Shown: positions 1-53,047 of the stretch, piece after piece
Position numbering within the stretch: the stretch's first letter is position 1
Layout of the letters: each line of letters starts with the position of its first letter
DNA from: Spartobacteria bacterium
Lineage (GTDB): Bacteria; Verrucomicrobiota; Verrucomicrobiia; Chthoniobacterales; Chthoniobacteraceae
Direction: 5' to 3'
Assembly (NCBI GenBank): GCA_021324825.1
Contig: JAJPII010000016.1
Location: forward strand, 124,001-188,000
Length of the DNA: 64,000 nt
Made by a program: the position numbers and the translations under genes
The notes under the pieces: model-generated
What the model was told of the DNA's origin: nothing
Seen by the model: only the letters and a program-made list of their open reading frames with translations
Databases searched by the model: none

Positions 1-606
1 CCCAAGGAAGAGGGAGATCATGACAATGGCCTGGAGCGAACGTATGCCGCTGCACGCCTCCTCGATTCCGACCATACCGGTGGGGCCTTCGATGACGTTT
101 CCGTGCTGCACCGCCGGTATGCCCCAGAAAACGAGTATCTCCGTCGCCACCCGCGTGACGACGCCCGTCAGCCCCAGGACGACGGCGTGTTCCAGGAAGA
201 ACGGCCATGGCACGGCGGTGACGAGGAAGACGGCGGGAGGCGCGAAATGCCGCGCCCAGGGAGCGCCGCCCGCGGTGTAAGCGAGCAGGAGAAAAAGGGC
301 GATGACGAGAAGGGTGATCGTCCAGGTGGGGAGCAGCCAGTCGGGGTTTGCCTCCTTGATGAGCTTGACCGGGAGAATAGCCAGGGCCGCGACCGCCAGC
401 GCCGCGAAGGCGGAGCCGCGGGCGCGCGCCGTTTCCGGGCGCGATTGCCAGCGCCGCGCCAGGAGGAAGAGAAAGAGCAAAGGGACGGCCCAGCCGTAGT
501 TATAGTCGGGATCAATCGACCATTGGGGGCTGACTTCGGCAATAAACAACACCCACACGCCCAGAACGCACGCCAGAAGGGGAAGCGGGATGTCGCAAAA
601 CGTCAT
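1..606 (-). CDS. Exosortase (EpsH/Xrt family), N-terminal 202 residues, cut by window edge
   Basis: Translating the minus strand from the ATG at 606 gives an open frame of 202 codons running off the left edge. It is a polytopic membrane protein with several hydrophobic segments and ends in the exosortase catalytic-cysteine motif EEACSGIRSL (Cys near residue 185), preceded by the typical segment VIEGPTGMVGI. Exosortases are membrane cysteine transpeptidase-like enzymes that recognise C-terminal PEP-CTERM-type signals and process exported proteins. The later Arg and His catalytic motifs lie outside the window. The start overlaps the stop of the upstream antiterminator gene by four bases (ATGA), so the two are probably translationally coupled. 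A likely substrate is encoded at 4975-5754. Confidence 0.88.
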   Translation of the reverse strand, partial: MTFCDIPLPLLACVLGVWVLFIAEVSPQWSIDPDYNYGWAVPLLFLFLLARRWQSRPETARARGSAFAALAVAALAILPVKLIKEANPDWLLPTWTITLLVIALFLLLAYTAGGAPWARHFAPPAVFLVTAVPWPFFLEHAVVLGLTGVVTRVATEILVFWGIPAVQHGNVIEGPTGMVGIEEACSGIRSLQAIVMISLFLG

Positions 607-51827: not shown

Positions 51828-52151
51828 CTACTTGGCGGTGACGGCAAGAGTAAATGTGCGCGCGGGCGGCTTCTGCCTTTCCCACGCTCGTTGCAAGTTG
51901 AGGAGAATCCTTGCATTCCCCCTTGAGCGAACTCGCAAACGAAACTGCCGGACTCCACCCCCGCCGATCCCCGCGTTTTCAAAACGCAATAAATCATCCG
52001 TCTCCAAGGTGAGAACATCCTTCGGGAAATCCTCCCAATGCCAGGCGAATCCCGTCGTAGCGTTTTCCTCAAGGCGAATTGGTATGACATCCCCGACGGA
52101 GGCTTCGATGGAGCGATGATTTTCTTTCTCGGTAAAGATGAAATCCGGCAT
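51828..52151 (-). CDS. Chagasin-type cysteine-protease inhibitor (family I42), 107 aa
   Basis: Three loops that plug papain-like active sites are recognisable: EENATTGFAW (chagasin NPTTG loop with Ala for Pro), the Gly-rich segment AGIGGGGVRQFRLR, and LQRAWE in place of the RPW loop. The rest is beta-rich and the length is typical of the I42 family. No signal peptide is present. It is encoded 20 bp downstream of a papain-family protease gene in the same direction, so it is most likely the cognate inhibitor. Confidence 0.86.
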   Translation of the reverse strand: MPDFIFTEKENHRSIEASVGDVIPIRLEENATTGFAWHWEDFPKDVLTLETDDLLRFENAGIGGGGVRQFRLRVRSRGNARILLNLQRAWERQKPPARTFTLAVTAK

Positions 52152-52171
52152 CGATCAGGAACGTTCAACCA

Positions 52172-53047
52172 TCATGCAAACTCGAGCCCCCACATGGTTG
52201 AGTCAATCCCGCATTGGCCATAGGCAATGTGGAAAAAGCCGTGCTCCCCCCAGCCTGTTCCCCAGCTGTTCTTGCAAATCCACGCCCGCGACTTGTCATC
52301 GTATCCCACACAGCAGACGCAGTGGCCGCCGCGCAGCGCGCCGGAAACATGGTGGTAAATGCCGCTGGTATAGTTGTCAAAATCCTCGTACACGTTGAAG
52401 CAGGTGATTAGCGGCCCCTTGTTGGCGATCCAGCTTTTCATGTCGGCCGCGGATGTGATCGATTGCCATGCCTTGATCTTCGTCAATCGTTTTTGCCAAT
52501 CGGAACAAGGGTTGCAAGTCTGCTGGTGATCCGTGTAAGGAAAGCACTTTTCATCCACCGTGCCTGTCCCCTGCAACGAAGTGAGCGCCTGACTTGTATT
52601 CCAACCCGTGGAGCAAGCGCCGCCGCTTACTCCATGGTGGCAGAAAAACAGGAACGCCTCCGACAGGTCTTCATCCTTGTCAGGCGTCTTCCTGTCGATC
52701 AGCACCGCCGATTCCAGCGCCGCGACGCTCCCGAATGAAACGCACGAACCGCATTGTCCCTGGTCGCGAATGGGCGTCACATAGTTGCCATTCGGCAAAT
52801 TGCCGTGCGCCGCCGCCTTTCGCCAGTCAAATTGGGGCGGATAAGGCAACGGCCCGGCGACTGCCGCCATCGCTAGGAAGTGCTTATTGTTAACGAATGC
52901 GATCAACTCGCGCGCCTGGAGCGAGTGTTCCGTGATATCCGGGACGTAGCCCAGCGCATGTCGTCGCGGTTCCCCTTCGACCGATGTTTTCCAACGCGCG
53001 CCAGCGAAGGACAGCGTATCTTTAAGTTGTTTGGGATCTATAGCCAT
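52172..53047 (-). CDS. Papain-family (C1A) cysteine peptidase, 291 aa
   Basis: The catalytic residues are all present: oxyanion Gln96 and nucleophile Cys102 in RDQGQCGSCVSF (Val replaces the usual Trp after the Cys), His242 in LRGGHCVCCVGYDD and Asn260 in CKNSWGTGWGEHG. The N-terminal 70 residues form a short, atypical pro-region ending PPQFDWRKA. There is no signal peptide or membrane helix, so an intracellular or non-classically delivered enzyme is likely. The chagasin-type inhibitor gene follows 20 bp downstream. Upstream is a 320-bp non-coding stretch, partly A+T-rich. Confidence 0.9.
   Translation of the reverse strand: MAIDPKQLKDTLSFAGARWKTSVEGEPRRHALGYVPDITEHSLQARELIAFVNNKHFLAMAAVAGPLPYPPQFDWRKAAAHGNLPNGNYVTPIRDQGQCGSCVSFGSVAALESAVLIDRKTPDKDEDLSEAFLFFCHHGVSGGACSTGWNTSQALTSLQGTGTVDEKCFPYTDHQQTCNPCSDWQKRLTKIKAWQSITSAADMKSWIANKGPLITCFNVYEDFDNYTSGIYHHVSGALRGGHCVCCVGYDDKSRAWICKNSWGTGWGEHGFFHIAYGQCGIDSTMWGLEFA

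What the first reader, a model, noticed from the sequence alone, without database searches (positions are those of the whole stretch)
51828..53047. Papain-type protease with its own chagasin-type inhibitor, both without export signals
A C1A peptidase with complete Gln-Cys-His-Asn machinery is followed 20 bp later by an I42 inhibitor. Most bacterial chagasins are exported and not linked to a C1A gene. The co-location and absence of signal peptides suggest an intracellular toxin-antitoxin-like or latency pair. Val103 replaces the Trp normally following the catalytic Cys, which might alter the fit of the inhibitor.
Basis: partly seen in the sequence, partly recalled or inferred. Interest (0 to 1): 0.57.

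Follow-up and report, generated by a model that had tools for sequence, protein, structure and literature searches.

The report
Cytosolic papain protease with paired inhibitor
The two genes encode a papain-type protein-cutting enzyme, apparently kept inside the cell, and next to it the inhibitor that probably holds it in check; similar pairs recur in many bacteria and archaea, which offers a way to test what bacterial chagasin-type inhibitors are for.

Summary
Confirmed: on the minus strand a complete C1A peptidase (53047-52172, 291 aa) is followed after 20 bp by a chagasin (I42) inhibitor (52151-51828, 107 aa); neither has room for a signal peptide. Each family has one member in this genome. 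The pair is not a local oddity: of the 80 best peptidase relatives kept from 526 in GTDB genomes, 49 have an I42 gene beside them, in at least 12 phyla including archaea. None of those 49 enzymes has a Sec-like signal, against 13 of 23 usable unlinked ones. Unlinked chagasins of the window's phylum are nearly all exported (34 of 35), linked ones rarely (at most 9 of 49). The usual operon also has an unnamed 85-aa domain, found only in these operons and absent here. The modelled N-terminus resembles a procathepsin-B propeptide. Best reading: a laterally acquired, latent cytosolic zymogen held by its own chagasin. Inhibition, toxicity and trigger are untested. Toxin-antitoxin is possible, not shown; retained disulphide cysteines and lectin-like tails in relatives favour an outward role. 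Val103 is the subfamily norm. Ten searches of an open-licence library found no description.

The parts
52172..53047 (-). C1A (papain-family) cysteine peptidase gene, 291 aa, first gene of the pair
   Evidence: PF00112 E 8.2e-47; AlphaFold2 pLDDT 93.5, pTM 0.92
52850..53047 (-). N-terminal propeptide-like region, about residues 1-66 (end approximate)
   Evidence: model residues 1..290 align with procathepsin B zymogens (4i04_C Z 30.0, 260 aligned, rmsd 2.9), mature cathepsin B only from about residue 67 (8he9 Z 27.0, 216 aligned)
52760..52762 (-). codon of oxyanion-hole Gln96
   Evidence: invariant 38 of 38; 49 of 49 linked
52742..52744 (-). codon of catalytic Cys102 (followed by Val103)
   Evidence: invariant 38 of 38; Val103 in 48 of 49 linked relatives
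52322..52324 (-). codon of catalytic His242 (followed by Cys243, in 46 of 49 linked and 8 of 31 unlinked relatives)
52268..52270 (-). codon of catalytic Asn260
52152..52171 (-). 20-bp intergenic gap
51828..52151 (-). chagasin-family (I42) cysteine peptidase inhibitor gene, 107 aa, no signal peptide
   Evidence: PF09394 E 1.6e-19; best PDB sequence amoebiasin-2 3m86 E 9.2e-15, then chagasin 2nnr E 2.7e-9
52050..52064 (-). inhibitory loop NATTG (residues 30-34), counterpart of NPTTG
   Evidence: alignment; motif named in PMC5014320
51954..51965 (-). inhibitory loop GGGG (residues 63-66), counterpart of GxGG
   Evidence: PMC5014320
51882..51890 (-). inhibitory loop RAW (residues 88-90), counterpart of RPW
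   Evidence: PMC5014320

Best explanation
The pair is a two-gene operon for a latent cytosolic papain-type protease and the chagasin that keeps it inactive. Shown by sequence or model: intact catalytic residues, a propeptide-like N-terminus, all three chagasin inhibitory loops, no export signal on either protein, enzyme gene first and inhibitor gene 20 bp behind it, and recurrence of this arrangement in many phyla. Inferred: both are made together; the propeptide and the chagasin block the active-site cleft so that any enzyme matured in the cytosol is trapped; activity appears only when enzyme and inhibitor are parted or the inhibitor is outnumbered. The window's pair is a minimal form, acquired by lateral transfer, of a module that usually has a third gene. 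Whether the enzyme finally acts on its own cell or on something outside after lysis or unconventional release is open.
For: One C1 and one I42 in the genome, adjacent. 49 of 80 best relatives linked to I42; independent Pfam search finds I42 in 41 of 41 linked genomes searched (42 asked, one not held; 7 of the 49 loci not asked), 36 of them with a single I42. 0 of 49 linked C1s signal-like against 13 of 23 usable unlinked (8 of 31 unlinked dropped for short flank or truncation), Fisher p 1.6e-8. Unlinked I42s exported 34 of 35, linked at most 9 of 49. Zymogen-like model. C1 and I42 distance matrices correlate, r 0.61, n 47, 0 of 5000 permutations as high. A second, differently built case: on plasmids an ImmA/IrrE protein fused to I42 sits beside a different C1; 16 of 26 tblastn records match through the I42 part and all 16 have the C1 gene next to it, none of the 10 that match the ImmA part alone does. 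Lateral origin: nearest C1 in 212 other genomes of the order is 33% identical, against 58% to L079, a proteobacterial MAG; GC 57.0 and 54.3% against 63-67% for the FAD, GroEL and 53371-54522 genes around it.
Against: No binding or activity data. Up to 9 of 49 linked I42s may be exported while their C1 is not, which does not fit a purely intracellular pair. Within the main clade alone the C1/I42 correlation is weak (r 0.23, n 36, 214 of 5000). Signal peptides were judged by a crude hydropathy rule, not SignalP. No other genome of the genus is held, so persistence of this very pair cannot be seen.
Confidence: 0.7

Rival explanations
1. Outward-acting protease with self-protection: the enzyme is stored in the cytosol and released by lysis, grazing or an unconventional route, and the chagasin only protects the producer, as staphostatin does for prostaphopain.
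For: Papain-type disulphide cysteines are conserved in linked enzymes (C99 and C145 49 of 49, C136 and C178 47 of 49), odd for a protein meant to work in a reducing cytosol. Linked relatives without the special tail carry DUF346 repeats (three proteins), FG-GAP repeats, DUF5648 or DUF4114, families I know as lectin-like or extracellular. PMC9684519 (passages): staphostatin A protects S. aureus by preventing premature activation of prostaphopain.
Against: No Sec signal in any of 49 linked enzymes; no secretion genes recur nearby. The window's enzyme has no tail at all. Cysteines may be ancestral leftovers.
Confidence: 0.4
2. Toxin-antitoxin or abortive-infection pair: the freed enzyme degrades the cell's own proteins under phage or damage stress and the chagasin is the antitoxin.
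For: Co-directional two-gene layout, spread across phyla, plasmid cases. In one architecture the I42 is fused to an ImmA/IrrE protease beside an HTH repressor; these match PADLOC CapP (E 4.8e-15) and CapH (E 3.6e-13), and CapP is reported to cleave CapH when bound to ssDNA (PMC10904395, passages). In Deinococcus the operon is followed by caspase-family genes.
Against: Toxin first, antitoxin second, no regulator in the window. PADLOC finds nothing in either window protein. Among 138 neighbours of 47 linked loci, defence models match only single proteins. Toxicity untested.
Confidence: 0.25
3. Housekeeping or nutritional cytosolic peptidase whose activity is merely tuned by the chagasin.
For: Chromosomal place among core genes (ThiG, FAD oxidoreductase, GroEL, names by recall).
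Against: Patchy and lateral distribution; no relative at the FAD oxidoreductase neighbour in 14 of 14 family loci, flanks up to 1.5 kb.
Confidence: 0.15
4. Chance neighbours: the chagasin serves against foreign cysteine proteases and only happens to lie beside the C1 gene.
For: Pseudomonas chagasin Cip1 inhibits plant proteases (PMC5014320, passages).
Against: Linkage in 49 of 80 relatives and in three different architectures; no export signal here.
Confidence: 0.04

Closest known systems
Staphopain-staphostatin operons (scpAB, sspBC)
   Same: Papain-fold zymogen and a small cytosolic inhibitor encoded together, enzyme first
   Different: Staphopain is C47 and has a Sec signal; staphostatin is I57, not I42 (PMC7863939 and PMC9684519, passages; the Sec signal by recall)
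Chagasin-cruzipain and other protozoan ICPs (I42)
   Same: I42 inhibitor without signal peptide controlling endogenous C1A enzymes (PMC5014320, passages)
   Different: Eukaryotic; genes not known to me to be paired; there the enzyme is vesicular (recall)
Pseudomonas Cip1 / exported bacterial chagasins
   Same: I42 family, same three loop motifs
   Different: Exported; most Pseudomonas genomes have no C1A enzyme (PMC5014320, passages)
Bacillus Isp1 and IPI
   Same: Intracellular protease with propeptide and an intracellular inhibitor (PMC3901451, passages)
   Different: Serine protease, unrelated inhibitor fold lineage, and its intracellular role is questioned there
Fungal chimerolectin MOA (recalled, no call)
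   Same: Signal-less papain-like protease joined to a lectin domain, as in some linked relatives
   Different: No chagasin partner; window enzyme has no lectin domain

Membership tests
Peptidase family C1A (PF00112) | Pfam model over its cut-off | tested here: met
   160.5 bits against 20.7
Peptidase family C1A (PF00112) | Gln-Cys-His-Asn catalytic residues | tested here: met
   Q96, C102, H242, N260
Peptidase family C1A (PF00112) | Zymogen with propeptide across the cleft | tested here: inconclusive
   Model aligns end to end with procathepsin B; coordinates were not inspected and no processing was seen
Inhibitor family I42 (chagasin, PF09394) | Pfam model over its cut-off | tested here: met
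   70.4 bits against 27.2
Inhibitor family I42 (chagasin, PF09394) | Loops NPTTG, GxGG, RPW | tested here: met
   NATTG, GGGG, RAW at the aligned columns
Inhibitor family I42 (chagasin, PF09394) | Tight reversible inhibition of a C1A enzyme | not testable with these tools
   needs purified proteins
Staphostatin-type guarded protease | Enzyme exported with Sec signal, inhibitor cytosolic | tested here: not met
   no signal on the enzyme; frame has 9 codons before the ATG
Type II toxin-antitoxin system | Toxic to own cell unless antitoxin present | not testable with these tools
   needs expression in a laboratory strain
Type II toxin-antitoxin system | Autoregulated operon with DNA-binding antitoxin | tested here: not met
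   I42 alone, Pfam finds no DNA-binding domain
Known anti-phage defence system | Match to a PADLOC model | tested here: not met
   none for either protein at E 0.01
C1-EXT / EXT / I42 operon (this survey) | EXT tail and middle gene | tested here: not met
   no EXT in the window genome (positive control 29 of 30 genomes)
C1-EXT / EXT / I42 operon (this survey) | Enzyme falls in the linked C1 clade | tested here: met
   clade of 45 rows, SH-aLRT 98, 41 linked

The most novel reading that the evidence does not exclude
Cytosolic papain-chagasin modules are an undescribed, laterally spreading class of conflict systems in bacteria and archaea, built several times over: a stand-alone pair, a three-gene form with its own EXT domain, and a plasmid form in which a DNA-damage-type HTH/ImmA switch carries the chagasin. 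Loss or destruction of the chagasin unleashes the protease on the cell or on whatever breaks it open.
Probability: 0.25. Interest if true: 0.82.

Novelty: new variant of a known kind. Interest (0 to 1): 0.57.

Why it matters
[quoted passage not shown] The survey separates two classes, exported chagasins without a C1 neighbour and cytosolic ones paired with a C1 gene, and hands over enzyme-inhibitor pairs that can be tested directly. It also points to an unnamed 85-aa domain confined to these operons and to a plasmid version joined to an ImmA-type switch.

Tried and rejected
Val103 as an oddity: rejected, it is the rule. Signal peptide hidden by a wrong start: rejected, no upstream frame. Defence island: no enrichment. 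Phage carriage: no near match of the L104 operon in phages; phage C1 relatives are 23-36% identical and partial; among seven IMG/VR loci only L160 has I42 within its flanks by my profile. Empty site: orthologues of the FAD oxidoreductase neighbour in 14 family loci have no C1 or I42 beside them, but the other neighbour was not found there either, so no empty site was shown. My 'HemW' query was read in a wrong frame and is not used. A Cys243-Cys258 redox switch: considered and dropped; Cys258 lies inside a search pattern (WICKNSW) and is therefore biased, and I could not measure distances. First genome-contig scan with the single protein found nothing. First Mantel test on 54 rows gave r 0.33, p 0.002, superseded after leaving out three distant rows and four near-duplicates. 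Papers: ten searches used, none describing a bacterial C1-I42 operon; Rigden 2002, the likeliest place, is not held. The library holds open-licence papers only.

Full report
Observation. The minus strand of 51828-53047 holds a 291-aa C1A peptidase (PF00112, E 8.2e-47) and, 20 bp behind it, a 107-aa I42 inhibitor (PF09394, E 1.6e-19). All four catalytic residues are present and invariant in 38 of 38 aligned sequences. The reading frames are closed 9 codons before the first ATG and 1 codon before the second (300 and 108 aa stop to stop), so neither protein can have a longer form with a signal peptide. The nearest solved sequences are dipeptidyl peptidase 1 (3pdf, E 1.2e-29) for the enzyme and amoebiasin-2 (3m86, E 9.2e-15) and chagasin (2nnr, E 2.7e-9) for the inhibitor. 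The inhibitor keeps the three loops that PMC5014320 (passages) lists for chagasins, as NATTG, GGGG and RAW.

Own genome and near kin. The 3.3 Mb assembly has one C1 and one I42 match, the two neighbours studied here. In 40 genomes of the family I42 occurs in 6 and C1 in 7, and only the window's genome has both. In 387 genomes of the phylum, I42 occurs in 97 and C1 in 79; by my comparison of the two lists 22 genomes have both, and only the window's has them adjacent. In 213 genomes of the order the next best match to the window's peptidase is 33% identical, while L079, from a MAG labelled proteobacterial, is 58% identical over 224 columns. GC is 57.0 and 54.3% for the two genes, 63-67% for the FAD, GroEL and 53371-54522 genes around them and 62.2% for the window. 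This fits lateral acquisition.

Relatives elsewhere. A tblastn in plasmids gave C1 relatives with an I42 gene beside or near them in Deinococcus, Streptomyces and Priestia. My I42 profile, seeded with the window and four plasmid sequences and retrained twice, finds an I42 reading frame in the flanks of 49 of the 80, nearly always just downstream on the same strand. Pfam's own model confirms I42 in 41 of 41 of those genomes that could be searched; 42 were asked, L122 was not held, and 7 of the 49 loci were not asked. In 36 of the 41 it is the only I42 of the genome; I checked by coordinates that it is the linked one for seven of them (L088, L095, L103, L104, L105, L109, L112) and take it for granted in the rest. 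The 49 lie in at least 12 named phyla of bacteria and archaea, and the tree mixes phyla freely. The window falls in a clade of 45 rows (SH-aLRT 98) of which 41 are linked; of the other four, L085 and L099 run off the contig within 322 bases of the C1 gene. Its partner in the tree is L100, another two-gene form (support 95, though L100 is a long branch).

Two classes of chagasin. By a crude hydropathy rule that tests every possible start, none of the 49 linked peptidases has a Sec-like signal; of 31 unlinked ones, 8 were dropped for short flanks or truncation and 13 of the remaining 23 have one (threshold 1.8; 12 at 2.0; Fisher p 1.6e-8 and 8.8e-8). For the inhibitors it is the reverse of the usual: 34 of 35 I42 loci of the window's phylum that are not beside C1 look exported, mostly as lipoproteins, while at most 9 of 49 linked ones do, several of these with an internal start that would remove the signal. 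The 35 are the best-scoring loci, not a random draw. The 9 exceptions count against a strictly intracellular pair. Val after the catalytic Cys is present in 48 of 49 linked and 22 of 31 unlinked relatives; Trp only in 8 unlinked ones. Cys after the catalytic His is present in 46 of 49 linked and 8 of 31 unlinked.

Anatomy of the common form. In most linked loci the peptidase has a C-terminal extension of about 85 aa and a middle gene, whose product ends in the same kind of domain (called EXT here), lies between it and I42 (32 middle frames printed). In 30 linked genomes searched, EXT occurs exactly twice in 29 and never in the one whose locus (L089) lacks it; every pair of matches shares one contig, in frames of the size of the peptidase and the middle protein. 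It is absent from 387 genomes of the phylum, the window's included. It has no hit among PDB sequences, NCBIfam or, at credible level, Pfam. Other linked peptidases carry DUF5648, FG-GAP, DUF346 or DUF4114 regions instead. The window's enzyme has no tail and is a reduced or simple form. Beyond these genes no neighbour recurs: the most frequent Pfam family is in 3 of 138 neighbours of 47 loci.

Mechanism. AlphaFold2 with 38 sequences gives a confident model (pLDDT 93.5, pTM 0.92). Its best matches are procathepsin B zymogens over the whole length (4i04_C, Z 30.0, rmsd 2.9, 260 aligned residues, model 1..290), while mature cathepsin B aligns only from about residue 67 (8he9, Z 27.0, 216 aligned). 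So the N-terminus is propeptide-like, and the chagasin would be a second lock. The distance matrices of C1 and I42 agree over 47 loci (r 0.61, 0 of 5000 permutations), but only weakly inside the main clade (r 0.23, 214 of 5000, n 36). That C1 and I42 bind each other is therefore inferred from recurrence, motifs and co-inheritance, not shown.

A second and a third construction. In a Bradyrhizobium plasmid an HTH gene is followed by an ImmA/IrrE-I42 fusion and then, overlapping by one base, a C1 gene; PADLOC's CapH and CapP models match the first two. Of 26 plasmid records similar to the fusion, 16 match through the I42 part and all 16 have the C1 gene next to it; none of the 10 that match the ImmA part alone does. 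I42 was confirmed by profile in the five fusions that I read. Within the window's own order, 3 of 29 fetched loci of another C1 subfamily (L211-L213) have I42 directly downstream, as do a Priestia plasmid and viral contig L160. That three unlike C1 types sit beside I42 argues against chance.

Role. Retained papain-type disulphide cysteines (49 of 49 and 47 of 49) and lectin-like tails in relatives favour an enzyme that works outside the reducing cytosol after lysis or unusual release, with the chagasin as self-protection. The ImmA-linked form favours a stress-triggered switch. The window offers no regulator and no tail, so I leave the role open between these.

Comparison with what is known. 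It works like staphopain-staphostatin in having an enzyme and its guard in one operon, but is not of that kind: the families differ and there is no export signal. It belongs to C1A and I42 by every test I could run. The toxin-antitoxin label is untested. In the literature seen, bacterial chagasins were without a known role (PMC5014320) and without a verified bacterial target (PMC2784779); my ten searches of an open-licence library found no description of C1-I42 operons, which does not show that none exists.

Noticed in passing
L077 2996-5821, L196, L197, L198, L199: Plasmid cassette HTH / ImmA-IrrE fused to I42 / C1 peptidase, usually followed by a further gene of about 260 aa and a uracil-DNA glycosylase gene on the other strand; 16 records incl. 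the archaeon Haloarcula marina.
   Followed up: partly
L082 6823-7077 and 7321-7575 (and homologues, alignment A6): EXT, an unnamed domain of about 85 aa found only as the peptidase tail and as the middle protein of C1-I42 operons.
   Followed up: partly
L074 7865-12750: In Deinococcus aetherius plasmid pDAETH-2 the C1-EXT-I42 operon is followed by caspase-family genes.
   Followed up: no
L017, L018, L023, L024, L029 and others: Some genomes of the phylum encode proteins of 420-460 aa with three I42 domains in a row.
   Followed up: no
L160 (IMG/VR 2654587987): A 50-kb viral contig carries a C1 gene with I42 next to it, like the Priestia plasmid L076.
   Followed up: no
L107 7625-8341: An extra membrane-protein-like gene lies between the middle gene and I42 in a Syntrophobacteraceae MAG.
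   Followed up: no
L133, L142, L145, L146, L154-L156: A side clade of linked enzymes, mostly with other tails; in some the first I42 loop reads SLGGAGYSW-like instead of NPTTG.
   Followed up: no
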